Source: Halichondria panicea (taxonomy: Eukaryota > Porifera > Demospongiae > Suberitida > Halichondriidae). Taken from it: DNA of 64,000 nucleotides. The translations under genes and the position numbers were made by a program. Below are positions 1 to 53,216 of the stretch, in pieces. Positions within the stretch are counted from its first letter, which is position 1; each line of letters opens with the position of its first letter. The notes beneath the pieces were generated by a model, which was not told the DNA's origin, searched no databases, and saw only the letters and a list, made by a program, of their open reading frames with translations. Where the stretch lies: positions 7,038,419 to 7,102,418 of the forward strand of contig NC_087381.1 of NCBI RefSeq assembly GCF_963675165.1. Direction: 5' to 3'.

Positions 1-1284
1 CCTAAAATCGAGGCAAGTAGACTCTATAAAGTTACCTCCAATTAGATGCGACCCTCTAAATATGGCTATACCTTGGTATAAAAAGTCACAATTCATGAAT
101 ATAATTAAGCCTCTATAATGACATCAATATTATGGTTACATTCCATTCCACATAATTAAGTGTAACATATAATTATGTCACTACTGTAACTAATGTAACA
201 TCAATCACCACTGTAACAACTGCAACAACTGTAACACCAGTCACCACTGTAAAGCTAGTCACAACTCACCACTGTAACAACTGTAACAACTGTAACGCTA
301 GTCACAGTCTACAGTGTCTTGTCTAGTCTTTGGTCTACAGTGGTGACTAGCGTTACAGTGGTGACATGTGTTGCATTGGTGACATGTGTTACAGTTGTTA
401 CAGTGGTGACAAGTGTTACAGTTGTTACAGTTGTGACTAGTGTTACAGTTGTTACAGTGGTGACTAGCGTTACAGTGGTGACATGTGTTACAGTGGTGAC
501 AAGTGTTACAGTTATTACAGTGGTGACTGGTGTTACAGTTGTTACAGTGGTGACTGGTGTTACAGTTGTTACAGTGGTGACATGTGTTGCATTGGTGACA
601 TGTGTTACAGTTGTTACAGTGTTGACAGATGTTACAGTTGTTACAGTGGTGACTAGCGTTACAGTGGTGACATGTGTTGCATTGGTGACATGTGTTACAG
701 TTGTTACAGTAGTGACAAGTGCTACAGTTGTTACAGTTGTGACTGGTGTTACAGTTGTTACAGTGGTGACTGGTGTTACAGTTGTTACAGTGGTGACATG
801 TGTTGCATTGGTGACAAGTGTTACAGTTGTTACAGTTGTGACAGATGTTACAGTTGTTACAGTGGTGACTAGCGTTACAGTGGTGACTAGCGTTACAGTG
901 GTGACAAGTGTTACAGTTGTTACAGTTGTTACAATCGTTACAGTTGTTACAATGTTGACAGATGTTACAGTTGTTACAGTGATGACATGTGTTACAGTTG
1001 TTACAGTGGTGACTGGTGTTACAGTTGTTACAGTAGTGACATAATTATTATGTTACACTCCATGCGTACGTACACTTATTGGAATGGAATGTAACCATAA
1101 TATTGATGCCTATACCCTCATTATAGAGGTTTAATTATATTCATGAATTGTGACTTTTTATACCAAGGTATAGCCCTAAATATGCGACACCTGGGCTTCA
1201 ATATAATTGTTCAACCTCCAAAATAAGCGACCTTTGGTTTTGAAATTATTAAAAAGTATCGCTTTAAATCGAGATCTTACGGTA
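1..1284. mobile_element. TACCGTAAG MITE, right part, interrupted by foldback copy 1
   Basis: This is the leftmost of about nine copies of a MITE present once per unit. Its right end (ATCTTACGGTA) is at 1274-1284. The foldback transposon sits inside it. Confidence 0.6.
64..1175. mobile_element. Foldback minisatellite transposon, copy 1
   Basis: The element starts GGCTATACCTTGGTATAAAA and ends with its reverse complement. It is flanked by the perfect 8-base duplication CTAAATAT at 56-63 and 1176-1183. The unoccupied target is visible elsewhere (for example near 17220). Inside the ends, about 110 bases of unique inverted sequence lead to a 27-base minisatellite built from 9-base subunits such as GTAACAACT. 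The left arm runs to about 305 and the right arm, in opposite orientation, from about 346. It carries no plausible transposase. Confidence 0.9.
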
Positions 1285-2683
1285 GCCCAGCTAGATGCGG
1301 CTATTATTCGAAACATAAGCCAATAATTGCTGTGATCCTAGTCCACAGTAGTGCACTAAAACCCTGTTCTCAAATGTTTCAGCATGCCTCCAGTCTGGTT
1401 TAGCTCCTGAGTTGCTGTGCTAGACAGTTAATTTAGTCATACATCACTACATGCACTGTATTATATCACTCTTCTGTAATCATGTCGTGTCATCAGCCGA
1501 GGGTTTGCACTTTAGTGCTCTAGTTATTTTTAGTGATGGCATTAATTTGTGTGAACATTCTTTAACTGTATTCCGTGGTAAAGTTGTAATCCATGTCACG
1601 AACATTAATTTGAGAATATTAGCCCATGCTGTAAATATTTTGATGTTTTGATTTAGTTTCCTTTCATCAGTTGCATGGTTGTTCACTTAAAATGTAAACC
1701 TTTGGGTAACTCCTTAACTATAATATTATGGTTTTACGGTCGGAGTAGCAATCCACACCACAGAGGCAAATTATTCCTGTCTTAGACTAGTTGACTAACC
1801 TCCGAATAAAGGACAGTTTGAGAGTTTTGTCCTCTGGTGGGAGGTTAATTCTTATCGAAGACTGTTTCAGCATGCATGTGTACAATTGACTCCTTCACAC
1901 TCATGCACACGAATTGCTTTGGAGAAGTGCTGCTGGAGCTCATGCCAACTCAACCTGCTTTCACCATCCACCACCAACCCATTATTATATCTTGTTTGCG
2001 TGTTTCTTCAATAGAATTGCATAGTACACCCACCCAGAATGATGAGTTTGAACAAGTAGCTAAAATAATGTTCGAAAGCAGTTTAGTGAGTAGCTAGTTA
2101 GACCAAATGTTAAACTCTACTCTTTGCTGGTACCAAGAGCAGAACTTGTCTTATATCTCCAAACAATATCAATTGCCTACAGGATACCTTGCCTTCATTG
2201 GTTTGCTGTTCTTTGTGTATAGAGAATGTACTTGATATAATACAGCTCTCTAGAAATGACCTACAATGTGTCCATCACATATGAGCAACGAATACTTCTC
2301 ACGTATTCAGCGAAACTAACTTTCCCTACCATGTTATTTGTGCCCTTGTAGTGTAGTGGCTTGAACGTGCTCTTGCCCTCCCCCGTACACAGACACCAAC
2401 TAATGATTGTATTTTGTGTCTGTGGTAACTGCTATCAGTGAAATACAACAATATTATACTATAATTATAGCCACCTCGATACGAAGCCGTGGTATATATT
2501 TGATGGACGTATATATATTCGAGTAAAATCTCACTGTTTGGGAAAATATGCTTAGTCCCTTCTAGTGCCTATAAAGTTCTTAGAAAATGGTGGACGTATT
2601 TTCACGAGGGTACGATACATGGACCAATGCATGCATGTGCTGTTAACGTTTTTCTAGTGTCCATAATTTATTTGTATTCACAG
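1176..2683. other. Intron upstream of cluster 1
   Basis: Right part of the interrupted TACCGTAAG MITE, then the standard unit spacer: CCGAGGGTTTGCACTTTAGT near 1496, GGCATTAATTTG near 1537, TTTGAGAGTTTTGTCCTCTG near 1817 and the pre-exon segment. This is the short form of the spacer without the 2.4-kb block. No gene is seen. Confidence 0.6.
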
Positions 2684-3110
2684 TGGCAGTGAATGAGGAT
2701 GGAGACACTCCTCTTTCCAGTGCGTGTTTCCGTGGTGACCTGGAGATGATCAAGGTTCTCATTAACAAGCATGTTGATCTAAGTAGTAAGTGTTTATCAG
2801 TGCTGTTACGTTGTTGATGGTGGTCTTCCACAGAGCCAGTCAACAAGGCTGGTGACACTCCAATCTCTCTGGCCTGTGCTAATGGCCACTTGGACACAGT
2901 CAAGTATCTTGTGAACCAGCATCATTGTGATCCTAAAAGTAAGCATTGGTACATAATTATGGTACATCAATTGCTGCATCACTCAGTACACTCGTACATG
3001 TACAGATACAGTCAACAAGGCTGGTGACACCCCATTCTCTTTGGCCTACAAAAGTGGACACTGGGAAGTGGTAAAGTATCTCGCCATCACTCATCACTGT
3101 GATACAAAAA
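2684..3110 (+). CDS. Ankyrin exon cluster 1 (3 exons)
   Basis: Exons are 2684-2785, 2834-2938 and 3006-3110, separated by introns of 48 and 67 bases with GT-AG ends (donors gtaagt, gtaagc, gtaaag; acceptors ttcacag, ttccacag, tgtacag). Each encodes one ankyrin repeat with the usual core: GDTPLSSACFRGDLEMI in the first, GDTPISLACANGHLDTV in the second, GDTPFSLAYKSGHWEVV in the third. The first exon differs from its counterparts in clusters 2-5 (DLS instead of DPN at the end, NEDGD instead of NKAGD) and resembles the first exons of clusters 6 and 7 (SSAC, RGDLEM). The phase-1 ends make all three exchangeable. The exon calls are firm; membership of gene A is inferred. Confidence 0.85.
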
Positions 3111-3690
3111 GTAAAGTTTGTTCATTGGTTGTCAATGAATGACCTGTTGGTTTTATCGCACTATTATTCTATAGAATTGCATATCATTATTGATACCGTA
3201 GCTGTAAGTTTGGCTCTATTGGCAGTTTTTAATGCTGCAGGCATAATTATTATAAGTGCAAATGATGTACTGGGACTGACTACCAAGCTAATTGCATGCC
3301 ATTGGTAATCTTTAATCCATGATTCGCCAATCGCAAGTTTACCCGCTATAAGTTATAGCCTATAGCATGATATATATACTATGGGACAGATTGAGGATTG
3401 AGGAAAAGTTCCCCTTTTCTGGATCTCAGTCAAGACACTAGATAAAGTTATTAACCCGAGGCGCGTAGGCGGCCTCAGTTACAGTATAGTCTGTCTGTGT
3501 GTCTGTGTGTCCATGTGTCTGTCGCTCAATTTGGCTTACCTGGTGATTAGGCATCACAATTTGTACGTAGCATTAAAACTAAGGCTTAAAATTTGGCAGA
3601 TTTTGCAAAGAAGTCTTTGTTTCGTAGAAAGGTGAGCTAAACCTAAGAAGCTTTTTGCGTACTACTAAACGCGGCTATTATTTGATTAAT

Positions 3691-3932
3691 TACCGTAAGA
3701 CTTCGATTTAAGGCGACCCTCCAAATATGCGACACCCAGGAGCTTCAGCAATTTTCTGACCTCTAAAAGTGAGCGACAGCTGCGTTGACAAAAAAAATTA
3801 ATGTCGCGTTCTAAATAGAGGTAAATAATAGTGACACCTGGGCTTCAATATAATTTTTCAACCTCCAAAAAGAAGCGACCTCTGGCTTCGTAATTATTAA
3901 AAAGTGTTACTTTAAACCGAGATCTTACGGTA
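3691..3932. mobile_element. TACCGTAAG MITE in cluster 1-2 intron
   Basis: TACCGTAAGACTTCGATTTA and its inverted partner (CGAGATCTTACGGTA) bound it. Arms read TATGCGACACC-like sequence in both orientations. This copy is about 100 bases shorter than most. Direct copies of GCGGCTATTATTnGA lie just outside each end. Other copies are at 9299-9645, 12028-13337 (interrupted), 16964-17311, 22395-22741, 25031-25439, 56456-56862 and 61636-61991. Confidence 0.65.
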
Positions 3933-4984
3933 GCCCAGCTAGATACGGCTATTATTCGAAACATAAACCAGTAATTACTGTTTGCTTTGTGTGTTTGTGG
4001 AAAAGGGTCGATACAATAGAAAGCTAGAATTGTGTCTGGTTTGTCTCCATTAGCTGACTCTGGAATCCTACTCCAGGAGCCATATTTCTCTGCATGAGAC
4101 TGCAGGCTTCTTTGCTGTGATCCTAGTCCACAGTGCATATATCTATCTATGTACCACTAAAACCCTGTTCTCAAATGTTTCAGCATGCCTCCAGTCTGGA
4201 TTAGCTCCTGAGTTGCTGTGCTAGACAGTTAATTCAGTCATACATAACTACATGCACTGTATTATATCACTCATGTCACTAGCCGAGGGTTTGCACTTTA
4301 GTGCTCTAGTTATGCCTCGAGGCGTAGCCGCACAAGGAATACGACTGTGTGTGTGTCTGTGTGTGTGTGTATTCCAGCTGTAACTGCTCAAACTACTCAA
4401 CGGTTGCAATGCGACGAAAACTAACAGCTTCTATAGGCTCTTAGCCACGTTCTCTTGGATTTTGATTCGTGGATTAGCAAACTAAAGCTTAAAACAGCTA
4501 GCTAGCATTAGTAGCCATTTGTGAAATTGATCTCTTAATACAGGAATATTCCAATGATGTAATTGCCTGCAAACCAGTCTCCATACTCACTCAGGTGGAA
4601 AATTAGGTGGGAACAGGAGTATGAATGTATTCATAATTATACACTCCTGGTGGGAATTAGCTGCGAACAAGGTAGTATTGTAATATAATGTGTGTGTTGT
4701 ACTGTGTTCTCACTGAAGCTTTATAGTACTGGTGCAGTACGTTCTGTGTTGTACCAAGGGCGTATTTAAAGTAGTCTATGTAGTATAGTACATGTATAGA
4801 TTGTCTACAATTGCAAGGAATAACTTCGTCATCGGTATTGCCTACATTGAGCGATACAGATCTAGTGTATGTTATCAGCAGCATTTATCACTTGGGTTCG
4901 TTCATGCACATGACCTTCACGTATCATAATTAACAGTTACATTAACTGTGCTATGAAAACAATACACTCACGAGGACAATGACA

Positions 4985-5348
4985 CAGTGGCGGATCTAGG
5001 ATTCTTGAAAGGGGGGTTCCAGGGTTCTGAGCGGATCAAGGACCTAAAAAAAGGTCATACTTTTTCGAAACAGAGCATGCGCATTAACAGACTGAATTTT
5101 TCCTAAAAAAAAGGGTCATCACTTTTTATAAGCAGCCTGCATGCACTACACACTGGAGAATTTTAGCCTTCATAGTCACTGAAACTGCACAGACAAAGCT
5201 TCGCAGGACTAAAAAGGACTAAAGGTAAGTGAGAAGTGCATGTGAAAGCTAGTAAGAAAAGAACAACTTGCTAATGAGCCTCCCACTCACTTCTTTCTCA
5301 AAGGGGGGCTCAATTGAACCCAAAGAACCCCCTCTGGATCCGCCACTG
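4985..5348. mobile_element. hAT-like MITE, CAGTGGCGGATC ends
   Basis: Perfect inverted ends CAGTGGCGGATC / GATCCGCCACTG, flanked by ATGACA on both sides. The interior is non-coding. Later copies at 18242, 26521 and 57796 share the same flanks, so they moved with the 2.4-kb block rather than by transposition. The end sequence is typical of hAT-type elements, which normally make 8-base duplications. Confidence 0.75.
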
Positions 5349-5495
5349 ATGACATGATATCAACAGATAAATATAATCATTATCTATCTACATATTCACC
5401 TACAACGTAAATACATGCAAGAGACTGAGTCGAGTCGCAGCCAGTAGGCTACTGGCTGCGAGTGTAGCTAGCTAGCGAATTTAAGAGTATGTATG

Positions 5496-5896
5496 CAGTG
5501 GCGTAGCCAGAGGGGTGCAGAGGGTGCTCCAGCACCCCCTCTGGCCTCAGACTCTGCTCCACAAGTTCCTTTTACTAACTAGCTAAGCTAGCTAGCTAGC
5601 TGATATGAGATCGAGAGTACTAGTACTAGAGCTCTATTGTCACAACTCAAAACAATGCATTTTATAGGACATCTTCAAATGAAGATGTGGCTTAACCACC
5701 AGTACCTCAAAGCAGCAGTATACCCTAATTTCTTTAGCCAGATTGTTAGAATCAATCTCAGAGCATGTAACAACAAAAATTTTCTGGGGGAGTGCCCCCA
5801 GACCCCCCTGTTGGGGCGAATGCGCAAAGCGCACTGGTAATTTGGACAATCCATTCATCCAGCACCCCCCCTCTCAAATCCTGACTACACCCCTTG
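5496..5896. mobile_element. hAT-like MITE, CAGTGGCGTAGCC ends
   Basis: The left end CAGTGGCGTAGCCAGAG pairs imperfectly with the right end (reverse complement CAAGGGGTGTAGTCAGG). A strong internal hairpin (GAGGGTGCTCCAGCACCCCC) lies near the left end. It is non-coding, although open frames cross it. Confidence 0.6.
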
Positions 5897-7761: not shown

Positions 7762-8716
7762 TTGCAGTAACTAAGGCTGGAGACACTCCTCTCTCCCTTG
7801 AGTGTTCCCGTGGTCACCTGGAGATGGTCAAGGCTCTCATCAACAAGCATGTTGATCCAAATAGTAAGTGTTTATCGGTGCTGTTACATTGTTGATGGTG
7901 GTCTTCCACAGAGCCAGTCAACAATGCTGGTGACACCCCACTCTCTCTGGCCTGTGCTAATGGCCACTTGGACACAGTCGAGTATCTTGTGAACCAGCAT
8001 CATTGTGATCCTAAATGTAAGCATTGGTATATAATTATGGTACATCAATTGCTGCATCACTCAGTACACTCGTATACATGTACAGGTACAGTCAACAATG
8101 CTGGTGACACCCCACTCTCTCTGGCCTGTGCTAATGGCCACTTGGACACAGTCAAGTATCTTGTGAACCAGCATCATTGTGATCCTAAAAGTAAGCATTG
8201 GTACATAATTATGATACATCAATTGCTGCATCACTCAGTACACTCGTATACATGTACAGGTACAGTCAACAATGCTGGTGACACCCCACTCTCTCTAGCC
8301 TGTGCTAATGGCCACTTGGACACAGTCAAGTATCTTGTGAACCAGCATCATTGTGATCCTAAATGTAAGCATTGGTATATAATTATGGTACATCAATTGC
8401 TGCATCACTCAGTACATTCGTATACATGTACAGGTACAGTCAACAATGCTGGTGACACCCCACTCTCTCTGGCCTGTGCTAATGGCCACTTGGACACAGT
8501 CAAGTATCTTGTGAACCAGCATCATTGTGATCCTAAAAGTAAGCATTGGTATATACATAATTATCGTACATTAATTGCTGCATCACTCAGTACACTCGTA
8601 TACATGTACAGGTACAGTCAACAAGGCAGGTGACACCCCACTCTCTCTGGCCTACAAAAGTGGACACTGGGAAGTGGTCAAGTGTCTCGCCATCACTCAT
8701 CACTGTGATACAAAAA
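7762..8716 (+). CDS. Ankyrin exon cluster 2 (6 exons)
   Basis: Exons are 7762-7863, 7912-8016, 8086-8190, 8260-8364, 8434-8538 and 8612-8716. The first is type A (NKAGD-like start, SLECSRGHLEMVKAL). The next four are nearly identical type B exons (GDTPLSLACANGHLDTVKYL, ending HHCDPK). The last is type C (SLAYKSGHWEVVK, ending HHCDTK). The B exons form a perfect-length tandem array with a 174-base period, made of a 105-base exon plus a 69-base intron. Because 69 is divisible by three and the intron has no in-frame stop, an open frame runs from 7968 to 8633 straight through exons and introns. This is the largest cluster in the window; cluster 5 is its duplicate with one B exon fewer. Confidence 0.85.
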
Positions 8717-21049: not shown

Positions 21050-21820
21050 TAAGGCTGGAGACACTCCTCTCTCCCTTGAGTGTTCCCGTGGTCACCTGGA
21101 GATGGTCAAGGCTCTCATCAACAAGCATGTTGATCCAAATAGTAAGTGTTTATCGGTGCTGTTACATTGTTGATGGTGGTCTTCCACAGAGCCAGTCAAC
21201 AATGCTGGTGACACCCCACTCTCTCTGGCCTGTGCTAATGGCCACTTGGACACAGTCGAGTATCTTGTGAACCAGCATCATTGTGATCCTAAATGTAAGC
21301 ATTGGTATATAATTACGGTACATCAATTGCTGCATCACTCAGTACACTCGTATACATGTACAGGTACAGTCAACAATGCTGGTGACACCCCACTCTCTCT
21401 GGCCTGTGCTAATGGCCACTTGGACACAGTCAAGTATCTTGTGAACCAGCATCATTGTGATCCTAAATGTAAGCATTGGTATATAATTATGATACATCAA
21501 TTGCTGCATCACTCAGTACACTCGTATACATGTACAGGTACAGTCAACAATGCTGGTGACACCCCACTCTCTCTAGCCTGTGCTAATGGCCACTTGGACA
21601 CAGTCAAGTATCTTGTGAACCAGCATCATTGTGATCCTAAAAGTAAGCATTGGTATATACATAATTATCGTACATTAATTGCTGCATCACTCAGTACACT
21701 CGTATACATGTACAGGTACAGTCAACAAGGCAGGTGACACCCCACTCTCTCTGGCCTACAAAAGTGGACACTGGGAAGTGGTCAAGTATCTCGCCATCAC
21801 TCATCACTGTGATACAAAAA
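21050..21820 (+). CDS. Ankyrin exon cluster 5 (5 exons)
   Basis: Exons are 21050-21151 (A), 21190-21294, 21364-21468, 21538-21642 (three type B) and 21716-21820 (C). It is the duplicate of cluster 2, but with three B exons instead of four. Features before the array are offset by about 13.25-13.29 kb from their partners, and features after it by 13.10 kb, so the difference is one 174-base module. The B introns are again 69 bases, in frame and stop-free. Residues match cluster 2 almost everywhere, including the unusual donor context CCTAAAT|GT in two B exons. Confidence 0.85.
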
Positions 21821-29545: not shown

Positions 29546-30506
29546 GTAAAGTTTGTTCATGGTTGTCAATGAATGACCTGTTGGTTTTATCGCACTATTA
29601 AATTGCATTTTATTATTGATACCGTAGCTGTAAGTTTGGCTCTATTATTGGCAGTTTTTAATGCTGCAGGCATAATTATTATAAGTGCAAATGATGTACT
29701 GGGACTGGCTATCAAGCTAATTGCATGCCATTGGTAATTTTTAATCCATGATTCGCCAATCACCAAGTTTACCCGCTATAAGTTATAGCCTATAGCATGA
29801 TATACATATACTATGGGACAGATTGAGGATTGAGGAAAAGTTCCCTTTTTCTGGATCACAGTCAAGACACTAGATAAACTTATTAACCCGAGTATCATCA
29901 TTTATGTTGGAAAATTGCATTGTATAAATAAACATTACGAAGTGACAATCCTATAGCCGTCTCGAGTATAACGGACATTGCTAAATTCGTTCCTTGCTAT
30001 TACGTCTAGTTATAATGAGTGCACCCAATACCCAATACCTGAGCCTGTTGTGGTTGGGTAGAAATGTAATTATATAATTATAGACTGTATGCATGTATAG
30101 TTATATAGTTGTTTATACTAACATTTACCATGCATCACTAACTTCTGGTACTATTTTTTAGGTTTTCTATTACTAGCTGTAAAGCGTGACGAATATTACA
30201 GACTATGTAATTACATACCGTACGGGTAGAAAATTTCGAGGTGTTTTTTATTTCGCATTTTTCGTGGGTGGCTGCAGAACACGAAAATTAAAACCCATGG
30301 AAGGCTTCGTATACGCATGCGAGATAGTGCCACACCCTAACTCTACGAAATTACTACCCGCGACATTTTCCAAATAAAACAGAATATTGAATTGCACAAA
30401 AATTTACAGCCTCTAAATTTTCCACCAGTACGGTAACTATAGTTATTATTATAGTTGTTTATACTAACATTTACCATACATCACTATAACTTCTGTACTA
30501 TTTTAG
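29546..30506. other. Intron before the Roc-COR exon, with duplicated splice-acceptor segment
   Basis: The sequence leading into the exon is duplicated: TAGTTGTTTATACTAACATT occurs near 30106 and again near 30452, each followed by a TTTTAG acceptor and similar exon-like bases. The upstream copy (TTTTCTATTACTAGCTGTAA) is interrupted after about 25 bases and is not used as coding in my model. A TACCGTACGG-ended MITE lies between them. Confidence 0.6.
30216..30435. mobile_element. 220-base MITE with TACCGTACGG ends
   Basis: The left end TACCGTACGGGTAGAAAATT is mirrored by the right end up to 30435 with two mismatches. It is non-coding, and TA at each end may be the target duplication. It sits between the two copies of the splice-acceptor segment. 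Confidence 0.65.
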
Positions 30507-32782
30507 GTGTTCTACTACTAGCCATAACGCATAATTGTGAGGTAAAAGTGGAGTTTTTATTGGCAGAATGCCACAGTGATCCGAATGTGACCAGCAAAGA
30601 TGGCAAGACACCTCTCGATTTCTCCAACAACCCTAAGATCATAAAACTCCTCTTGAAACATGGAGCCAAGGCTGCCAATGTCTACAAGGAACACAGCAAG
30701 TTCATCGGAAAGCTCTCCTCCGAGCGACCCCCACACCTTCCTCTGTCTGTGCTCATCATTGGTGATGGTGGCGTGGGGAAGAGCACTCTGTTGAAGTCCA
30801 TTCTGAGCCCAAAAGGGTTTTGGTCTAAACTACAGAAGGCAAAACCCGTAGATGGTGTCGATGCAAAGACAGTGGGTATCATTCCGTACGAAATATACAC
30901 CAAAGAGTTTGGGAGGATCATCTACTTTGATTTTGCTGGCCAGAAAGAGTTTTACACGAGCCACTGTGCCATTCTGGAGAATGCTGTTCAAATCTCACCA
31001 CCCATCATTATCCTCTGTGCTAAGCTTGTAGAAAGTGAGCAGGCGATTATTGATTCCATGTATCGTTGGTTGACCCTCGTCCAAAACCAGTGCACCAATC
31101 TGAAAGGCAAAGCACACGTGATAGTAGTTGGTAGCCATGCCGACCAGGTGAAGGAAATGAGAGAAGATCCACAAGCCAAAGCGAGAATCTTTGCCCCCAT
31201 TATCAAGCAATTCCCAAAGTTTGAGTTTAAAGAGTTCATTCCAATGGATTGCCGCTTTGCTGATTCGAACGATATGACAAAAGCAAGAAAACAGATTCAG
31301 AAAAGCTCTGCTATTCTTCGTTCTCCAGAAACTATCAGCTTGAATGCTCACACCTTTTACATCTACCTTGCCGAAAGCTTCAAAGACGACCTTGCTTTGT
31401 CGTTGAGAAATGTCTATGAAAGAATCAAGAGCGATCTTAACGAGGATCTGTCAAAACGCACTCAAGATATTCTTTCTTTCATACCCAGCACCGTCCCTCA
31501 CCTTGTAGAGATCTGTGACCAGCTACATAAAAGAGGTCTCCTATTGTTTCTCCGCAATGACAGCTCTCCAGAGAAGTCTTTCTTAGTGATTGACCAAGCA
31601 ACACTTCTGTCCAGAGTCACTGGGACCGTGTTTGCTCCTGAAAGTTTCCGCCAACACTGCAAGCTAGCTTCAAGCACTGGAGTGGTGCCTTTGACGAAAT
31701 TCGAAAAAGAATTTGATGGCTTCGACATAGAGATGCTGATTGCCTACATGTCTCATTTAGAGCTGTGTTTCGAAATATTAGACAAGCAAGTGTTGGATTT
31801 CATTTCGAAGGAGATTGCTTCTTCCACTGACAGAGATGCTTCTGTTCCTGAGTCTGACACTCGATACCTCTTCTTTCCAGGGCTCATTCGAATCGAAACT
31901 CCAGAGCAAGTTTGGAAAGATACTCAAAGCATCAAGTACCACTTCGGTTGGATACTTAAAACCTCTCAAAAAACTGAGTTTTTTGATCCTCGCTGCTTTC
32001 AGGTTCTCATTCTGAGGATAGTGTTCACATTCCGCCTTGCCCCTGCCAGTAACATAATGCATGATGTCCCTTCCCTACAGAGATTCTGCTCTGTGTGGAA
32101 GAGTGGGATCTGCTGGTGTGATGATGATGGAATCACTGCACACCTCGAGCTTGCTGAAAATGGCCGATCTCTTGTTCTCAAAATGCGCACTGACACAGTT
32201 CGACCTGAAGGTCTGATTCATCGCTCCAGAATTATGAGCACAATCTGTGAGACTGTTGAAAGTTTTGGCCGGAATGTGAATGTGATTGAATCAGTGATTG
32301 ATCCAGATGAAGTTATCAAGCATCCTCTGAAAAATCCCTCTGACCTCCCACTGGTCAACATCAAAGATATTGCAGCAGCTGTCTCCTCCAACAGAAGAAT
32401 GATCAAATCAACACAACAAGTTGCCTTAGCCTTCAAGCATCTCTTACAGTTTGAGCCATACGCTGGCCTAGATCAAACCACCATACAGTGTATCCACAGT
32501 GACAAAAATCCCAAGAAAGATGAGAAAATCTCCACAGCTTTCATTTCATATTTTGCCAGTCAAATTTCCGACCCTGACAGTGAAGAACAGGATCAAGTAG
32601 TTCGAAACAGTCGTATGTACAGAAGAATCCTGAGCCCTTCCATTGTCAAAATCCCGCTAGTCAGTCCCAGACAGGAGGTGGTCCAGGCCCTTGAGATGTG
32701 GAGGAGTGAAACTGAGGGAACTTACAGCTGTCTGAGGGAGACTCTCAACAAGTACAGCGTCTTCACTGGGAGAAACCCTCTG
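30507..32782 (+). CDS. Roc-COR exon of gene A (end of ankyrin array, Roc GTPase, COR domain)
   Basis: About 758 codons in one exon, entered in phase 1 after acceptor ttttag and left in phase 0 at donor gtgagt. The first ~65 residues finish the ankyrin array (KDGKTPLDFSNNPKIIKLLL). Next comes a Ras-like Roc domain: P-loop GDGGVGKST (30761-30787), switch-2 DFAGQKEF from 30929, and GSHAD from 31130 in the place of the usual T/NKxD or THxD guanine-binding motif. The remaining ~500 residues match a COR domain in position and character (for example LVEICDQLHKRGLLLFL and YLFFPGLI). In ROCO proteins Roc binds GTP and COR mediates dimerisation. All visible nucleotide-binding motifs are intact, so an active switch is likely. 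The open frame reaches an ATG at 30455, but that lies in the intron and I do not take it as a start. The COR part is duplicated at 38332-39885. Confidence 0.9.
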
Positions 32783-32860
32783 GTGAGTAGAATTTAAAAT
32801 TATATGGTCTAACTGCATAACTTTGCTTTCATTATAATATTGCTAATCACGTACATACAG

Positions 32861-38136: not shown

Positions 38137-38224
38137 GTGTGTTGCAATTGCATTAATTCTTCTAGCAATCATTACAACGATAATTATAGGGAATGTGTAT
38201 AATATTGCGTGTGTATGTTTTTAG

Positions 38225-39885
38225 CTCAAAACAGGACTTATAAGACTATTTATGTACTTATTGCACCTCCTTCACTACTGAGTGTAGGTGCTGTGATTGG
38301 CATTGTGATTGGATCATTGGCTCTTATTGAGTTCAAAGAGTTCATTCCAATGGATTGCCGCTTTGCTGATTCGAATGATATGACGAAAGCAAGAAAACAG
38401 ATTCAGAAAAGCTCTGCTATTCTCCGCTCTCCAGAAACCATCAGCCTGAATGCTCACACTTTTTACATTTATCTTGCCGAAAGCTTCAAAGACGACCTTG
38501 CTTTGTCGTTGGGAAATGTATATGAAAGAATTAAGAGCGATCTTAACGAGGATCTGTTAAAACGCACCCAAGATATTCTTTCTTTCATACCCAGCACCGT
38601 CCCTCACCTTGTAGAGATTTGTGACCAGCTGCATAAAAGAGGTCTTCTCTTGTTTCTCCGCAATGACAGCTCTCCAGAGAAGTCTTTCTTAGTGATTGAT
38701 CAAGCAACACTTCTGTCCAGAGTCACTGGGACCGTGTTTGCTCCTGAAAGTTTCCGCCAGCACTGCAAGCTAGCTTCAAGTACTGGAGTGGTGCCTTTGT
38801 CGAAATTCAAAAAAGAATTCGAAGGCTTTGACACGGAGATGCTGATTGCCTACATGTCACATTTAGAGCTGTGCTTCGAAATTATAGACATCCAAGTCTT
38901 GGATTTCATTTCGAAGGAGATTGCTTCTTCCACTGACAGAGATTCTTCTGTTCCTGAGTCTGACACTCGATACCTCTTCTTTCCAGGGCTCATTCGAATC
39001 GAAACTCCAGAGCAAGTTTGGAAAGATACTCAAAGCATCAAGTACCACTTCGGTTGGCTTAAAACCTCTCAAAAAACTGAGTTTTTTGATCCTCGCTGCT
39101 TTCAGGTTCTCATTCTGAGGATAGTGTTCACATTCCGCCTTGCCCCTGCCAGTAACATAATGCATGATGTCCCTTCCCTACAGAGATTCTGCTCTGTGTG
39201 GAAGAGTGGGATCTGCTGGTGTGATGATGATGGAATCACTGCACACCTCGAGCTTGCTGAAAATGGCCGATCTCTTGTTCTCAAAATGCGCACTGACACA
39301 GTTCGACCTGAAGGTCTGATTCATCGCTCCAGAATTATGAGCACAATCCGTGAGACTGTTGAATGTTTTGGCCGCAATGTGAATGTGATTGAATCAGTGA
39401 TTGATCCAAATGAAGTTGTCAAGCATCCTCTGAAAAATCCCTCTGACCTCCCACTGGTCAACATCAAAGATATTGCAGCAGCTGTCTCCTCCAACAGAAG
39501 AATGATCAAATCAACACAACAAGATGGCCTCACCTTCAAGCATCTCTTACAGTTTGAGCCATACGCTGGCCTGGATCAAACCACCATACAGTGTATCCAC
39601 AGTGACAAAAATCCCAAGAAAGATGAGAAAATCTCCAGAGCTTTCATTTCATATTTTACCAGCCAAATTTCCGACCCTGACAATGAAGAACAGGATCAAG
39701 TAGTTCGAAACAGTCGCATGTACAGAAGAATCTTGAGCCTTTCCATTGTCAAAATTCCGCTAGTCAGTTCCAGACAGGAGGTGGTTCAGGCCCTTGAGAC
39801 GTGGAGGAGTGAGACTGAGGGAACTTACAGCTGTCTGAGGGAGAATCTCAACAAGTACAGCGTCTTCACTGGGAGAAACCCTCTG
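38225..39885 (+). CDS. Transmembrane helix fused to a duplicated COR domain
   Basis: One open exon of about 553 codons, acceptor tttttag, donor gtgagt. It starts with a short juxtamembrane stretch (QNRTYKTIYV), then a transmembrane helix (SLLSVGAVIGIVIGSLALI). It continues without a break into EFKEFIPMDCRFADSNDMTK, the end of Roc and the complete COR region of gene A. From about 38332 to the donor it is nearly identical at DNA level to 31226-32782. One difference is a 3-base deletion (GWLK for GWILK). The P-loop, switch-2 and guanine-recognition motifs of Roc are absent. The junction lies inside a short match (TTGAGTTnAAAGAGTTC), suggesting duplication joined at microhomology. The protein would be a membrane-anchored COR lacking GTPase activity. 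Confidence 0.75.
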
Positions 39886-39977
39886 GTGAGTGGAATTCAT
39901 TTTCTCGTGTATATTTATATAGTTCGTATGTGTATATTTATAGTTAATATACACATTACTTGGTCCCCTACATGCAG

Positions 39978-40050
39978 GACCTAGCGGGTGTGGCTCACAG
40001 CAAGGTTGATCTCTCTGTATTCCCAGAACCTCCTGCTACAGATGATACAG
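39978..40050 (+). CDS. Linker exon of the chimeric gene
   Basis: 73 bases, phase 0 in and phase 1 out, encoding DLAGVAHSKVDLSVF and then PEPPATDDT. The first half copies gene A's exon at 32861; the second half does not, so the duplication ends near here or the sequence has changed. Confidence 0.65.
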
Positions 40051-40579: not shown

Positions 40580-40628
40580 GTTTGTACATAAATATAGCAT
40601 TGATTTCAGCTTGACTTGCTTGCTACAG

Positions 40629-46254: not shown

Positions 46255-46557
46255 GTGAGTTGCCACCAGCTGTTGTACACATGCAGTAGTCAGTAGGTAT
46301 CTAGTGAGTTGCATGGTCAGTACAGCTAGATCAGTGGTTTCCGTGTAATGCCGTTCATGCACCTTCCATATGCAGTTAATTAGTGATAAGTTTCTTTGAA
46401 TGGGAATGTATTTGTAAATAGTGTAATATGATTGGTCACAATGTCTATAACCTCGATCTAGCAACATTTGCATTCATAGTTTATTTTATAGCCCTCCGGC
46501 AGTTTACTTGTACAGTGCAATACCACAGTGTATGACTAGACAATGACAATGCCTCAG

Positions 46558-46887
46558 GTATGCCTTCTCAGTACACTCCATATTTATACTACATGAGTCC
46601 CTTTGGCTTTAATACTTCCTTTTCTAATTATTATGTAGATCCTCTGTCCTCGTACCCAACACTGGAACAGCTGAGTCAGTTGGAATGTGACCAATGGCTT
46701 CAACTTGGTGTTCGCTTCAGATTGGAAAATGACCAACTGGAAACCATAAAGAAGAGCCAACATCCCATAGCAGCAACTCTCCAGGCAATCAAAATTAAGA
46801 ATATTGACATGCAGTGGAAGGATATTGTGGAAGCTCTAGTGAGCATTGGAGAGTACATGTTGGCAGAGAGTGTGTGCACTCAGCAAG
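46558..46887 (+). CDS. Gene B exon 3: Death domain
   Basis: 330 bases, phase 1 at both ends. After a tyrosine- and serine-rich stretch it encodes TLEQLSQLECDQWLQLGVRF, LENDQLETIKKSQHP, WKDIVEALVSIGEYMLAESV. The W-x-x-L-G, L-E-x-I and W-x-x-I-x-x-A-L landmarks identify a Death domain. It sits between two ankyrin blocks, an unusual placement. Confidence 0.75.
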
Positions 46888-46982
46888 GTCAGTAAATGAT
46901 CGCTTCTGTTTTATTACTAACATTCTTGTATGGGAAACTACTCCGTACTGCAAGCTTGTGTAGACTTTTTTCTCTTTTGCTG

Positions 46983-47795
46983 TAGAGTAAACAACTGATT
47001 ATCATTTTCGAATGCTTGCTCTCGAGGGTAGCAGCTCAGAGTACTAAGTGGAATGACAAGGCCAAACATTTAACTATTCTAGTTCAAACATATAATTATA
47101 GCCACGATTTTTCGAACTCTCTCTCTCGTATCAACAGAAGGCTCTAAAGAGCTAGCTACAATGTTTTAGAGCTAGCTACAATGCATGACTGTAATTTACA
47201 ATAAATAAACTATGTACAGTTCTGGTTTCGAGGTCTGACTGCAAGCCGCTAGACAATGGTGGCCTCTTGAAAAGGTGCAGTAGTGTCATCAAAATCCAAA
47301 CGATTAATACCTTTTCTTTATAATTTCCAGTGTAGCCATGACATAAAACTGCAACTTAGGAAAAAAATGGAGAAAAGGTATTAATCGTTCGGATTTTGAT
47401 GACACTACTGCACCTTTTCAAGAGGCCACCATTGTCTAACGGCTTGCAGTCAGACCTCGAAACAAGAGCTGTACATAGTTTACTTGTTGTAGATTAAAGT
47501 TATGCATTGTAGCTAGCTGTTTAGAGCCTTCTGTCAATACAAGAGAGAGAGAGAGAGAGAGCGAAGATTCGTGGCTATGTTTGAACTAAATCTGTTCCAA
47601 TAGTTGATTGTTTGGCCTTGTCATGATCACTCCGCCGAGGAAGCTTTTTGCTGATCGTGGGTTCGGACTTGAATAGAGCCTTACCTAGTCTATACCTATA
47701 GGTATTATCAGCTTAGTGCTCTGAGCCGCTGTCTTCGAGAACAAGCGTTCGAAAATAGAAAATAGAACGTGTTCGATAATCGTTCGTTTACTCTA
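46983..47795. mobile_element. Foldback element in gene B intron
   Basis: Ends are TAGAGTAAAC and GTTTACTCTA. Most of the element is one long imperfect palindrome. For example, TTTTCGAA..GCTTG..TCTCGA near 47006 pairs with its reverse complement near 47730. The stretch from GGTCTGACTGCAAGCCG (about 47231) to AAAGGTATTAATCG pairs with 47375-47460. A (GA)n run at about 47543-47562 pairs with CT repeats near 47120. The right arm has an unmatched insertion around 47640-47710. I found no clear target-site duplication. Confidence 0.65.
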
Positions 47796-47886
47796 TTCGT
47801 CTGTATTCACGTCTGCACTGTACAATGCAATAAACTTAACAATTGTATGCTGTCTTAATTAATGATGCTAACAATACCAACTGCAG

Positions 47887-47979
47887 GGGAAGGTGAGAGT
47901 GCTCTGTTAGTGAGTGCATTCTATGGCTGGCTGGACTGTGTCAAGCGTCTTGTGGAAACTGTGGGCCTCAATCCAAAAG
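47887..47979 (+). CDS. Gene B exon 4: ankyrin repeat
   Basis: 93 bases, phase 1 at both ends, acceptor actgcag, donor gtgaaa (weak). It encodes GEGESALLVSAFYGWLDCVK and RLVETVGLNPK, a single ankyrin-type helix pair with GESALLVSAFYGWLDCV replacing the usual GDTPLSLAC..GHLDTV. It is the last recognisable coding exon before the transposon-rich stretch. Confidence 0.65.
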
Positions 47980-48215
47980 GTGAAAATGGTACCTCAAGAA
48001 AAAGTTTCATGTTCACTCCTATAGTTAGACTGAGCCCACAATAATCGCTTATCAAATTATATTTATGATCGAGGCTTATTTTAATAATAATGGATAATAT
48101 AGTTATTATGACTAATAACTAACTGGGAGCTCAGGCAAACAAAAAGCAAATAAGTAGAGCTTGTCTATAGGAGTGAAAGAAAAAACCTTTTCTTGAGGTA
48201 CTGTTTCGTCACAAA

Positions 48216-49052
48216 TACCGTATATGCTTGATCAGGAGCCGCGGCTACTAAATGTTTCATTTTGCTGGAAGAGGACGCTACAATTTGAGAGAGGCCATAG
48301 TACTACTCAAGAGCGGCGTTTATTAGCTCCAGCTAATTCAACAACCTTTAGTTTGTCATCAAAAGTTATTTTCACCTGCATAAACTTGAACTCTGCCATG
48401 AGAAAGTCTTCGTGAAGCACTAACAAGCTGCTACCTGTAACCAACCAGCAGCTACGTGCATATACCGTAATTAATGTAATTACAGCGCCACTGTAATTTA
48501 AGTGCCACGTCAGCATCAGCGCAATTTTTTAGTTCCTAAAAAAGCGCCAACGGTTGCTGGAATTTTTTTTCTGGCGCTTATAAAAAGGCTTGTTTGAGAC
48601 ATCAAGACAATCATCCTGCATCTTTGACTTCCTTCACTTCTAACCCATAGCTACAGTCAATGAATGTTGTTCTCATGAGTCACTCAGCCTCTCAACGGTG
48701 TAGCTAGCAAGTGAAACTGAGTTAGATCACGCCCATTTTTTCTACTAATTCTATACTAGCTGTTGAACATAAGCGCCACCATAATTTAGGCGCCAGCTTG
48801 GGCAGAACGCAATTCTAAAGATGCGCCACTCAGAAGTGTAATTAATTTTTTCTGGCGCTTTAATTAAATCAATTACGGTAGCTATAGCTGCTAGTATTAA
48901 TAATTTTTTTAGCTGCCACGTGCAGAAATGCTAGAGTCACTGTTCACTGAGGCTACTATTTGAGAGCGGCTATACCATTTTGCTAGCAAGGGAGGCTACT
49001 ATTTGAGTGTGGCTCTTATACAAGCGCGGCCCCTGATCAAGCATATACGGTA
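48216..49052. mobile_element. TACCGTA-ended element with GGCCGCG subterminal motif
   Basis: The first bases TACCGTATATGCTTGATCAG are matched in inverted orientation by the last bases up to 49052, followed inward by GCCGCG on both sides. Subterminal arms share GCTACTATTTGAG-like motifs. It carries no coding potential and is about 837 bases long. A second element is nested inside (48463-48880). The TA at each end may be the target duplication. Confidence 0.6.
48463..48880. mobile_element. Nested MITE with TACCGTAATT ends
   Basis: TACCGTAATTAATGTAATTA at the left is mirrored by the right end, and AGCGCCA follows on each side. It lies wholly inside the 837-base element. Length is 418 bases, non-coding. 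Confidence 0.55.
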
Positions 49053-49438
49053 CTCCCTCCAGGTTCAAGGTGTTCAATAACAATGCTGATAGTAACGTAT
49101 AGGAAAGGCAATGAATAACGTAAGTGATAATCATCACTATACCGTACCCTCGCGAAAATAAGCCCATCTTGGAATAAACGCCCATCCCCTCTTTTGCTTC
49201 GAAGTTCTTGCTCGATTATAAGCCCACCCGGCCAGAATAATAAGTTGAGCATGCGCAGTAGCTATAAATACCACATGTTTACTATTAATTTTAGTAAAGA
49301 AAGGAAGTTTGGCTATACCTTGGTATAAAAAGTCACAATTCATGAATATAATTAAGCCTCTATAATGACATCAATATTATGGTTACATTCCATTCCACAT
49401 AATTAAGTGTAACATATAATTATGTCACTACTGTAACT

Positions 49439-51555
49439 AATGTAACATCAATCACCACTGTAACAACTGCAACAACTGTAACACCAGTCACCACTGTAAC
49501 ACGTATCACCACTGTAACAACTGTAACACTTGTCATCACTGTAACACTAGTCACAACTCACCACTGTAACAACTGTAACAACTGTAACACTTGTCACCAC
49601 TGTAACACTAGTCACAACTCACCACTGTAACAACTGTAACAACTGTAACAACTGTAACACTTGTCACCACTGTAACGCTAGTCACCACTGTAACAACTGG
49701 TAACACTTGTCACCACTGTAACAACTGTAACAACTGTAACACTTGTCACCACAGTAACAACTGTAACACTAGTCACAACTGTAACACTTGTCACCACTAT
49801 AACAACTGTAACAACTGTAACGCTAGTCACCACTGTAACAACTGTAACACTTGTCACCACTGTAACACTAGTCACAACTGTAACAACTGTAACACTTGAC
49901 TACTGTAACAACTGTAACACTAGTCACAGCTGTAACAACTGTAACACATGTCACAACTGTAACAACTGTAACACGTACTTGACTACTGTAACAACTGTAA
50001 CACTTGTCACAACTGTAACAACTGTAACGCTAGTCACCACTGTAACAACTGTAACACTTGTCACCACTCTAACAACTGTAACACTAGTCACAACTGTAAC
50101 AACTGTAACGCTAGTCACCACTGTAACAACTGTAACACCAGTCACCACTGTAACAACTGTAACACTTGTCACCACTGTAACACTAGTCACCACTGTAACA
50201 ATTATAACACTTGTCACCACTGTAACAACTGTAACACTAGTCACAACTGTAACAACTGTAACGCTAGTCACCACTGTAACAACTGTAACGCTAGTCACCA
50301 CTGTAACAACTGTAACACTTGTCACCACTGTAACACTAGTCACCACTGTAACAATTGTAACACTTGTCACCACTGTAACACTAGTCACAGCTATAACAAC
50401 TGTAACACATGTCACCACTGTAACGACTGTAACACTTGTCACAACTGTAACAACTGTAACACTAGTCACCACTGTAACAACTGTAACGCTAGTCACCACT
50501 GTAACAACTGTAACACTTGTCACCACTGTAACAACTGTAACACTTGTCACCACTGTAACACTAGTCACAGCTATAACAACTGTAACACATGTCACCACTG
50601 TAACGACTGTAACACTTGTCACAACTGTAACAACTGTAACGCTAGTCACCACTGTAACAACTGTAACACTTGTCACCACTGTAACACTAGTCACCACTGT
50701 AACAATTGTAACACTTGTCACCACTGTAACAACTGTAACACTAGTCACCACTGTAACAACTGTAACGCTAGTCACCACTGTAACAACTGTAACACTAGTC
50801 ACAACTGTAACAACTGTAATGCTAGTCACCACTGTAATAACTGTAACACTTGTCACAACTGTAACAACTGTAACGCTAGTCACCACTGTAACAACTGTAA
50901 CAACTGTAACGCTAGTCACCACTCTAACAACTGTAACACCAGTCACAACTGTAACAACTGTAACGCTAGTCACCACTGTAACAACTGTAACACTTGTCAC
51001 CACTGTAACAACTGTAACACTAGTCACAACTGTAACAACTGTAACACTTGTCACCACTGTAACAACTGTAACACCAGTCACAACTGTAACAACTGTAACG
51101 CTAGTCACCACTGTAACAACTGTAACACTTGTCACCACTGTAACAACTGTAACACTAGTCACAACTGTAACAACTGTAACACTTGTCACCACTGTAACAA
51201 CTGTAACACCAGTCACAACTGTAACAACTGTAACGCTAGTCACCACTGTAACAACTGTAACACTTGTCACCACTGTAACAACTGTAACACTAGTCACCAC
51301 TGTAACAACTGTAACACCAGTCACAACTGTAACAACTGTAACGCTAGTCACCACTGTAACAACTGTAACACTTGTCACAACTGTAACAACTGTAACACTA
51401 GTCACAACTGTAACAACTGTAACACCAGTCACCACTGTAACAACTGTAACACTAGTCACAACTGTAACAACATGCCACCACTGTAACATCTGTAACGCTA
51501 GTCACAACTGTAACACTTGTCACCACTGTAACACATGCAACAACTGTAACACTAG
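49439..51555 (+). repeat. 27-base minisatellite, left arm of copy 2
   Basis: Consensus GTAACAACT GTAACACTA GTCACCACT, a three-part unit of related nonamers. It is repeated with point variants and occasional loss of one nonamer. Confidence 0.95.
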
Positions 51556-51596
51556 TTCTTATAGTACTTATAATCTATAGTGGTGCCAGACTAAAG

Positions 51597-53077
51597 TGTT
51601 ACAGTAGTGACGTGTGTTGCATTGGTGACATGTGTTACAGTTGTTACAGTGGTGACAGATGTTACAGTTGTTACAGTGGTGACTAGTGTTACAGTTGTTA
51701 CAGTGGTGACATGTGTTGCATTGGTGACATGTGTTACAGTTGACAGTTGTTACATTTGTGACTAGTGTTACAAGTGCTACAGTTGTTACAGTTGTGACTG
51801 GTGTTACAGTGGTGGCTGGTGTTACAGTTGTTACAGTGGTGACGTGTGTTGCATTGGTGACTAGCGTTACAGTGGTGACATGTGTTGCATTGGTGACATG
51901 GTACAGTTGTTACAGTGGTGACAAGTGTTACAGTTGTTACAGTTGTGACTAGTGTTACAGTGGTGACAAGTGTTACAGTTGTTACAGTGGTGACTGGTGT
52001 TACAGTTGTTACAGTGGTGACTGGTGTTACAGTTGTGACAAGTGTTACAGTTGTTACAGTTGTGACTAGTGTTACAGTGGTGACAAGTGTTACAGTTGTT
52101 ACAGTGGTGACTGGTGTTACAGTTGTTACAGTTGTGACTAGTGTTACAGTGGTGACAAGTGTTACAGTTGTTACAGTGGTGACTAGCGTTACAGTTGTTA
52201 CAGTGGTGACTGGTGTTACAGTTGTTACAGTTGTTACAATTGTTACAGTGCTGACAGATGTTACAGTTGTTACAGTGGTGACATGTGTTACAGTTGTTAC
52301 AGTGGTGACTAGCGTTACAGTGGTGACATGTGTTGCATTGGTGACATGTGTTACAGTTGTTACAGTGGTGACAAGTGTTACAGTTGTTACAGTTGTGACT
52401 AGTGTTACAGTTGTTACAGTGGTGACTAGCGTTACAGTGGTGACATGTGTTACAGTGGTGACAAGTGTTACAGTTGTTACAGTGGTGACAAGTGTTACAG
52501 TTGTTACAGTGGTGACTGGTGTTACAGTTGTTACAGTGGTGACATGTGTTGCATTGGTGACATGTGTTACAGTTGTTACAGTGTTGACAGATGTTACACT
52601 TGTTACAGTGGTGACTAGCGTTACAGTTGTTACAGTTGTGACTAGTGTTACAGTTGTTACAGTTGTGACTGGTGTTACAGTTGTTACAGTTGTGACTGGT
52701 GTTACAGTTGTTACAGTTGTGATTGGTGTTACAGTTGTTACAGTGGTGACAAGTGTTACAGTTGTGACTGGTGTTGCAGTTGTTACAGTGGTGACAAGTG
52801 TTACAGTTGTGACTGGTGTTACAGTTGTTACAGTGGTGACAAGTGTTACAGTTGTTACAGTGGTGACATGTGTTACAGTTGTTACAGTGCTGACAGACGT
52901 TACAGTTGTTACAGTGGTGACTAGCGTTACAGTGGTGACAAGTGTTACAGTTGTTACAGTTGTTACAATTGTTAAAGTTGTTACAATGTTGACAGATGTT
53001 ACAGTTGTTACAGTGGTGACATGTGTTACAGTTGTTACAGTGGTGACTGGTGTTACAGTTGTTACAGTAGTGACATA
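51597..53077 (-). repeat. 27-base minisatellite, right arm of copy 2
   Basis: The same unit in inverted orientation (reading GTTACAGTTGTTACAGTGGT on the + strand). It includes a variant block with TGTGTTGCATTGGTGACA that is also common in copy 1. Confidence 0.95.
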
Positions 53078-53216
53078 ATTATATGGTACACTCCATGCGT
53101 ACGTACACTTATTGGAATGGAATGTAACCATAATATTGATGCCTATACCGTCATTATAGAGGTTTAATTATATTCATGAATTGTGACTTTTTATACCAAG
53201 GTATAGCCGGAAGTTT

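What the first reader, a model, noticed from the sequence alone, without database searches (positions are those of the whole stretch)
64..53208. A foldback transposon family whose body is an inverted 27-base minisatellite
Two copies (64-1175 and 49311-53208) share exact termini GGCTATACC...GGTATAGCC, and each is flanked by its own perfect 8-base duplication (CTAAATAT; GGAAGTTT). The interior is almost entirely a 27-base tandem repeat in two opposed arms. Length differs 3.5-fold by repeat number alone. Target duplications with unrelated sequences show genuine transposition, so this is a mobile element and not a local satellite. Eight-base duplications are known for hAT and P-type families, but I cannot place these termini in a named family.
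Basis: partly seen in the sequence, partly recalled or inferred. Interest (0 to 1): 0.82.

Follow-up and report, generated by a model that had tools for sequence, protein, structure and literature searches.

The report
Foldback transposon family moving gene clusters
The two repeats in this window belong to a recently active family of jumping DNA whose body is an inverted 27-base repeat, and two neighbouring copies elsewhere in the same genome appear to have jumped together and carried a 30,000-base cluster of genes to a new place.

Summary
Confirmed and extended. Both window copies are real, with exact ends and exact 8-bp duplications. The genome (131 Mb) holds 14 intact copies, whose 28 ends match exactly over 18 bases. 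Thirteen are near-identical and 1.1 to 4.7 kb long. Eleven of these 13 carry their own perfect 8-bp duplication. The other two explain each other: they lie 30.3 kb apart in direct orientation and share one 8-bp duplication at their outer edges. Together they bracket a 39.75-kb unit holding tyrosine-phosphatase/sushi/EGF genes. The ends of this passenger find their main relatives in an array about 250 kb away in opposite orientation, while its flanks belong to another gene family whose equivalent spacers carry no insert. This is best read as foldback-mediated macrotransposition. One 20-bp palindromic remnant with intact duplications marks a collapsed or excised copy. The minisatellite is almost confined to the family (566 of 567 exact hits of a 23-base probe). 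No autonomous partner was found. The 5'-GG ends and 8-bp duplications fit Merlin best, unproven. One correction: the short window copy also lost the conserved centre, so length does not differ by repeat number alone. The kind is known; this family appears undescribed in the papers searched.

The parts
56..63 (.). left 8-bp target duplication CTAAATAT of copy 1
64..1175 (+). copy 1 of the foldback family (1112 bp; internally deleted derivative)
64..185 (+). left terminal region of copy 1 (identical to the 122-base query taken from copy 2)
183..296 (+). shortened left minisatellite arm of copy 1
318..335 (+). 18 bases of copy 1 that align with none of four copies compared, where the conserved family centre is missing (deletion with filler)
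336..1041 (-). right minisatellite arm of copy 1 (same unit, opposite strand)
1032..1175 (-). right terminal region of copy 1
1176..1183 (.). right 8-bp target duplication CTAAATAT of copy 1
49303..49310 (.). left 8-bp target duplication GGAAGTTT of copy 2
49311..53208 (+). copy 2 of the foldback family (3898 bp)
49311..49432 (+). left terminal region of copy 2 (query that found the family)
49424..51556 (+). left minisatellite arm of copy 2 (27-base unit, 9-base sub-unit)
51557..51596 (+). centre shared by 12 of the 13 young copies
51597..53075 (-). right minisatellite arm of copy 2
53066..53208 (-). right terminal region of copy 2
53209..53216 (.). right 8-bp target duplication GGAAGTTT of copy 2

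Best explanation
A recently active, non-autonomous foldback family of cut-and-paste DNA transposons. SHOWN by sequence: fixed GGCTATACC ends, 8-bp target duplications, opposed minisatellite arms, no coding centre, clustering of insertions, a 20-bp collapsed remnant, and one 39.75-kb unit made of two direct copies around a 30.3-kb gene segment with a single shared 8-bp duplication. INFERRED: a transposase supplied in trans (most likely Merlin type) binds the ends; the 27-base arms act as many binding or enhancer sites and change length through slippage and gap repair; when two copies lie close together in direct orientation the transposase can pair the left end of one with the right end of the other and move everything between as a macrotransposon. 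Confidence per step: cut-and-paste foldback transposon 0.95; macrotransposition of the 30-kb segment 0.75; Merlin-type transposase 0.4; arms as transposase-binding arrays 0.5.
For: Genome search with 122 end bases found the paired ends. The 28 exact 18-base tips pair into 14 elements. 11 of 13 young copies have their own perfect 8-bp duplication; the other two, L006 and L007, share CATAAATT across the pair. The passenger is 30,342 bp; 4 of 5 pieces of it scanned have tyrosine-phosphatase, sushi or EGF domains. Its two end pieces (2000 and 1601 bp searched) find their long matches at C4:1.92-2.33 Mb on the opposite strand or inside the passenger itself; the only other match over nearly the whole of a query is 90%. 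The flanks on both sides are paralogues of each other (85% over 660 bp), and the joined flanks align across the junction, at 70-71%, to three spacers of the neighbouring array. The remnant GGCTATACCAAGGTATAGCC sits between two CAGAATTG copies and is the only place where the two 9-base tips lie within 30 bases. Minisatellite confined to the family (566 of 567). Uninterrupted frames through the joined flanks of L002, L010 and L011, 3 of 11 tested. Clustering: 4 pairs under 100 kb among 13 insertion events, reached in 8 of 200,000 random sets.
Against: No transposase with these tips was found in the loci examined or close to the listed tips. No donor scar: the two inner duplications within 30 bases of each other occur at 10 places, none on C4, against 6 for the reversed control. 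The older copy L014 has no matching duplication. Five further diverged ends (L015-L019) could not be paired. The clustering test used guessed lengths for 5 of 17 contigs. The empty-site alignments are only 70-71% and gapped at the site itself. Flanks and passenger share a short stretch (158 and 182 bp at 78-80%), probably a dispersed repeat.
Confidence: 0.82

Rival explanations
1. The 39.75-kb unit arose by homologous recombination and not by transposition of the whole: two copies in the phosphatase array recombined to release a circle carrying the passenger and one hybrid element, and the circle recombined into a single copy already sitting at the CATAAATT site.
For: Gives the same final structure, including the shared outer duplication and unmatched inner flanks. 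The two copies are in direct orientation and differ at 3 of 4664 aligned positions. Foldback ends are described as apparent hotspots of ectopic recombination (PMC3169594, passage read).
Against: Needs three events (a resident insertion, a circle, an integration) where macrotransposition needs one once the pair exists. Nothing here excludes it.
Confidence: 0.2
2. The 39.75-kb unit is an assembly error that swapped sequence between two near-identical 4.7-kb elements.
For: L006 and L007 are nearly identical and reads were not available.
Against: A swap would be expected to leave an element with the complementary wrong flanks elsewhere; the 28 exact tips are accounted for and the other 11 young copies have matched duplications. 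The joined flanks align across the junction to spacers of the same array.
Confidence: 0.05
3. The family is moved by a MULE (Mutator-type) transposase, as argued in print for most foldback elements, not by Merlin.
For: Most foldback elements have been placed with Mutator (PMC4079207, passage read). The genome has 31 MULE-domain matches.
Against: The one MULE copy resolved here has a 9-bp duplication and tips CGCTGTGAC; it is 1 of 6 loci examined, the other 5 unresolved. The 13 insertion events of this family that show a duplication (11 single copies, the pair, the remnant) have 8 bp.
Confidence: 0.3
4. hAT, P or KDZ (Zisupton) transposase drives the family; these can also make 8-bp duplications.
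For: 8-bp duplication length; hAT and KDZ domains are present in the genome.
Against: The KDZ subfamily examined here begins near CAGGGGG by alignment border in 3 of 4 copies, with no duplication resolved. hAT and P ends starting CA/TA are recalled, not tested; the one hAT locus fetched gave no ends. P was not searched.
Confidence: 0.2
5. A local satellite that happens to have inverted arms.
For: The body is a tandem repeat.
Against: Exact tips and distinct 8-bp duplications at scattered sites; minisatellite found almost only inside elements.
Confidence: 0.01

Closest known systems
Drosophila FB elements and the composite Ising TE (TE146) moved between foldback copies
   Same: Large host segments moved between foldback transposons (PMC6431247, passage read; the TE146 paper itself is not held); long internally repetitive inverted ends (recalled; FB ends also described as very long in PMC2775673, passage read).
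   Different: 9-bp duplications in FB (recalled). Here the ends are GGCTATACC, the duplication 8 bp, the unit a 27-base minisatellite, and the moved segment is resolved to the base with its duplication and paralogous empty sites.
Tm1 (root-knot nematode, Mutator/foldback)
   Same: Terminal repeats made mostly of a short tandem motif whose number varies between ends and copies (PMC3169594, passages read).
   Different: Motif mostly of 14 bases, 9-bp duplications, asymmetric 7-bp ends outside the inverted repeat; members with a Phantom-like transposase are known. None known here.
Tetris (Drosophila virilis)
   Same: Apparently non-autonomous foldback, 8-10 bp duplications, internal tandem repeats, no autonomous partner found (PMC4079207, passages read).
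   Different: 220-base repeats that also make satellite arrays; here the minisatellite stays inside the elements.
Galileo (P superfamily)
   Same: Foldback-like ends with tandem repeats that hold further transposase-binding sites (PMC3688188, passages read).
   Different: P-type transposase and 7-bp target sequences (PMC2775673, passages read); no transposase known here.
Ac/Ds macrotransposons of maize
   Same: Linked copies move with the DNA between them; a 28-kb macrotransposon that excised and left a modified 8-bp duplication is described (PMC9910405, passages read); direct orientation is named in the title of Huang and Dooner 2008 (reference-list entry seen).
   Different: hAT elements with an autonomous copy (recalled); here foldback elements, with the history inferred from one assembly.
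Merlin (IS1016-related) transposons
   Same: 5'-GG ends and 8- or 9-bp duplications (PMC8101967, passage read; five copies resolved here).
   Different: No Merlin transposase between these tips; the first 18 bases match the three Merlin tips compared at only 6-8 positions. A search for papers holding foldback, Merlin and transposon listed two, neither titled on such an element (listing only).

Membership tests
Foldback (FB-like) transposons | long inverted arms made of short tandem repeats of varying number | tested here: met
Foldback (FB-like) transposons | fixed termini and target-site duplication of constant length | tested here: met
   28 exact tips, all paired; 8 bp in 11 single copies, 1 pair and 1 remnant; not met in the one older intact copy L014
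Foldback (FB-like) transposons | arms able to pair with each other on one strand | tested here: met
   arms 91.5-95.1% complementary in aligned columns in 13 copies (copy 1 of the window left out); in the one copy tested (window copy 2, 0.947) five shuffles of the order of 27-mers gave 0.940-0.946, so the unit is shared and not its order; copy 1 folds end to end (no shuffle control at this length)
Merlin superfamily | 5'-GG ends and 8- or 9-bp duplications | tested here: met
   definition from PMC8101967
Merlin superfamily | IS1595-type DDE transposase between the same ends | tested here: inconclusive
   24 Merlin-domain matches in the genome; 15 loci examined, 5 with both ends resolved, none of the 15 with these tips; 9 matches not examined
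Mutator (MULE) superfamily | MULE transposase between the same ends; 8-11 bp duplications (range recalled) | tested here: inconclusive
   31 matches, 6 loci fetched, 1 resolved with a 9-bp duplication and other tips
hAT superfamily | hAT transposase between the same ends; 8-bp duplication; CAG/TAG-like ends (ends recalled) | tested here: inconclusive
   32 matches; 1 locus fetched, ends not resolved; 3 hAT matches lie within 8 kb of two listed tips, both with 3 mismatches
KDZ / Zisupton | KDZ transposase with these tips; 8-bp duplication | tested here: inconclusive
   53 matches; one subfamily, four copies fetched, begins near CAGGGGG in 3 of 4 and has no foldback tips; no duplication resolved
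P superfamily | P-type transposase between the same ends | not tested
   no search was left for it
Macrotransposon / composite transposon | two linked copies bounding host DNA, with one target duplication at the outer edges only | tested here: met
   outer CATAAATT on both sides, inner CAATCTTG and ATTATAGT unmatched
Macrotransposon / composite transposon | segment foreign to the target site and empty site known | tested here: met
   (empty site by paralogous spacers at 70-71%, not by another individual)
Macrotransposon / composite transposon | donor scar or observed excision | tested here: not met
   no scar of the expected kind on C4; a scar longer than 30 bases or a repaired donor would not be seen

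The most novel reading that the evidence does not exclude
The family is a Merlin-driven foldback, a combination not seen in the listing of the one search made for it, and it is a working vehicle for gene clusters: local hops place direct pairs inside tandem gene arrays, and the pairs then move tens of kilobases of genes into other arrays, seeding new arrays in new contexts.
Probability: 0.2. Interest if true: 0.75.

Novelty: new member of a known kind. Interest (0 to 1): 0.58.

Why it matters
Movement of large host segments between foldback elements is known from classical Drosophila genetics. Here one natural case is readable to the base: two direct copies, a 30-kb gene passenger, one target duplication, a likely source array and paralogous empty sites. 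It gives a concrete route by which tandem gene arrays can spread, and a family young enough that its excision, arm-length change and partner transposase could be tested.

Tried and rejected
Autonomous partner: profiles for Merlin, MULE, hAT and KDZ transposases were searched genome-wide. Ends were sought in 15 Merlin, 6 MULE, 1 hAT and 4 KDZ loci; none had the foldback tips. Closeness (8 kb) of Merlin, MULE and hAT matches to 98 of the 100 listed tip hits (two overlapping duplicates dropped; 122 in all, the 22 unlisted presumably with 3 mismatches because the list is ordered) gave L010 sitting beside a Merlin match, and three hAT matches near two 3-mismatch tips, which look like chance. The KDZ closeness check used a shortened list of tips and found none.

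Relatives among near-matching tips: L030-L036 showed no paired ends of this type. Diverged ends L015-L019 could not be paired; L015 holds reverse-transcriptase- and integrase-like frames, judged by eye.

Donor scar of the 39.75-kb unit: not found with the pattern used, nor in the two array pieces read. A simple inversion between two copies was considered for L006/L007 and rejected because the flank sequences do not fit (worked out by hand). Unequal crossing-over between two copies was rejected because it would not give a shared outer duplication (reasoning, no call).

Long open frames in the arms (up to 628 codons) are a mechanical effect of a 27-base unit without stops and are not taken as genes.
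Full report
OBSERVATION. Tandem-repeat analysis finds opposed arms of a 27-base unit, with related periods such as 9, 18 and 45. Autocorrelation in three left arms gives 0.78-0.80 at lag 27 and 0.63-0.65 at lag 9, so the unit looks like three diverged 9-mers. In window copy 2 the left and right ends match over the first 58 bases with one mismatch and then differ by small insertions; left and right ends can be told apart in the young copies because one end matches the left query at 99-100% and the other at 81-83%.

THE FAMILY. A search of the genome containing the window (131 Mb, 39 contigs, unnamed) with the first 122 bases of copy 2 returned 33 matches: 13 pairs, one pair of a diverged copy (L014) and 5 unpaired diverged ends. 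The 18-base tip occurs exactly 28 times and all 28 pair into 14 elements. Thirteen (L001-L013) are 1112 to 4718 bp long, and eleven of these 13 have a perfect 8-bp duplication of their own. The fourteenth, L014 on C9, has the same tips but ends 77-84% like the others and no matching duplication. The five diverged ends (L015-L019) suggest that the family is older than the recent burst. A 23-base minisatellite probe has 566 exact hits in the 14 elements and 567 in the whole genome, so the repeat is a part of the element and not a genomic satellite. The target sites are A+T-rich: 28% G+C over 13 duplications.

LENGTH VARIATION. Twelve of the 13 young copies share a unique centre. Copy 1 of the window lacks it and has 18 bases there that align with none of four copies compared. 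It is an internal deletion with filler as well as a loss of repeats.

REMNANT. The two 9-base tips lie within 30 bases of each other at one place only, C1:15035769-15035788. The 20-bp palindrome GGCTATACCAAGGTATAGCC is flanked on both sides by CAGAATTG (L029, printed). The best reading is that an element was once there and nearly all of it is gone while both duplications stayed. Whether this is an imprecise excision or a hairpin-driven deletion cannot be told.

INSERTION SITES. Joining the flanks and removing one duplication gives an uninterrupted frame of 111-130 codons at 3 of 11 sites tested, in stretches of 392 bases; the longest frames at the other eight are 34-93 codons. L002 lies in an EGF-repeat frame; L011 in a frame with no Pfam match. 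L010 lies inside a transposon of about 1.5 kb with GG ends and an 8-bp duplication, in a frame beside a Merlin transposase-domain match that starts 191 bases away.

CLUSTERING. Counting the pair L006/L007 once and adding the remnant, there are 13 insertion events. They fall on 4 contigs and include 4 pairs under 100 kb. Random placement on 17 contigs reached 4 such pairs in 8 of 200,000 sets, 3 pairs under 60 kb in 45, 1 pair under 20 kb in 4783, and used 4 or fewer contigs at a frequency of 9.5e-5 (five contig lengths were guessed and small contigs left out). Short-range jumps are the natural reading.

THE 39.75-KB UNIT. L006 and L007 lie on C4 at 2612953-2617670 and 2577920-2582610, in the same orientation. 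Each has unmatched flanks, but the outer flank of L006 and the outer flank of L007 are the same 8-mer, CATAAATT. Between them lie 30,342 bp, internally duplicated in part (84-89% over 2.9-4.0 kb); 4 of 5 pieces scanned have tyrosine-phosphatase, sushi or EGF domains, the fifth none. Two pieces, 2000 bp at one end and 1601 bp near the other, were searched in the genome. The first has 93 matches, the long ones in an array at C4:2.0-2.33 Mb on the opposite strand or inside the passenger; the best outside is 90% over query 10-2000 at C4:2329333-2331348, about 250 kb from the unit. The second has 76 matches (40 of 202 candidates scored), the long ones at C4:1.93-2.31 Mb on the opposite strand, best 83%; shorter, weaker ones lie at C4:3.12-3.15 Mb and on other contigs. 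Short pieces of the array reach 94-98% and a few very short ones 100%. The rest of the passenger was not searched. Outside the unit, the two flanks are paralogous to each other (85% over 660 bp, 83% over 746 bp); they share only a short stretch with the passenger (158 and 182 bp at 78-80%, plus two pieces of about 40), and the one flank frame scanned has no Pfam match over cut-off. The joined outer flanks align across the junction with spacers of the neighbouring array at C4:2641645-2641933, 2638705-2638992 and 2625421-2625613 (70-71%); the spacer at 2633436-2633612 aligns at 87% on one side and in a second, weaker piece on the other, close together. None of the four carries an insert there. 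The simplest account is that the left end of L006 and the right end of L007 acted as the two ends of one large transposon. The expected donor scar (the two inner duplications side by side) was not found on C4. A circle that recombined into a resident element would give the same product and stays open as a rival.

WHICH TRANSPOSASE. No copy has a coding centre. Eight-base duplications allow hAT, P, Merlin, KDZ and some MULEs (hAT, P and MULE from general knowledge; Merlin and Zisupton from papers, passages read). The 5'-GG end is the stated Merlin end (PMC8101967). In this genome five Merlin copies with both ends resolved (of 15 loci examined, of 24 matches) have GG ends and 8-bp duplications. 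One MULE (of 6 loci) has a 9-bp duplication. A multi-copy KDZ subfamily begins near CAGGGGG in 3 of 4 copies. P was not searched. The Merlin assignment is a lead, not a membership: no transposase was found between these tips, and three Merlin tips compared match at only 6-8 of 18 bases.

ROLE OF THE ARMS. In Galileo, tandem repeats inside foldback-like ends hold further transposase-binding sites (PMC3688188, passages read). By analogy the 27-base arrays here may gather transposase; this is inference. The arms of one element are 91.5-95.1% complementary in aligned columns (13 copies), but in the one copy tested shuffling the order of 27-mers in one arm gives about the same value, so the arms share the unit and not its order.

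NOVELTY. Foldback elements, and movement of host DNA between foldback copies or other linked transposons, are known. Library searches for foldback with sponge (7 listed of 7), foldback element with repeats and duplications (6 of 6), foldback with composite transposon (15 of 55), macrotransposition (15 of 42) and foldback with Merlin (2 of 2) showed no description of this family in the titles and abstract starts listed. The library is only open-licence papers, so this is not proof of absence.

Noticed in passing
window 7915-8653, 21193-21757, 55078-55799, 63507-64000: Four tandem arrays of a 172-174 base unit (94-99% matches within each array), with nearly the same consensus; the one scanned codes for ankyrin repeats.
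   Followed up: no
window 30455-32797 and 38203-39984: Two long, similar open frames; the first has a Roc GTPase domain over cut-off and a weak ankyrin match, the second shares much of its later part by eye.
   Followed up: partly
L024 413-1507; L019 994-1080, 3603-4332 and 3222-3271; L030 1306-1363: Short inverted-repeat elements with ends like TAGCCTCGATCCCAGGCC and 9-bp duplications; the left flank of window copy 1 also holds a TAGCCTCGAT stretch.
   Followed up: no
L057-L060 and other KDZ matches: A multi-copy KDZ-type transposon family, 96-98% alike over the longest pieces (3.6-5.6 kb) of four copies, beginning near CAGGGGG.
   Followed up: partly
L015 (C5:6532500-6537000): An old foldback end lies in the same 4.5 kb as frames that look like Ty3/gypsy integrase and reverse transcriptase, judged by eye from the translations.
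   Followed up: no
C4:1.92-2.33 Mb: A large tandem array related to the tyrosine-phosphatase/sushi/EGF passenger, almost all matches on one strand.
   Followed up: partly
C14:537836 and six further places on C14: Seven copies of GGGTATACGTTGGTATAA, two mismatches from the foldback tip; the two fetched (L031, L032) are identical over the 95 bases printed, so they look like a duplicated segment and not this family.
   Followed up: partly
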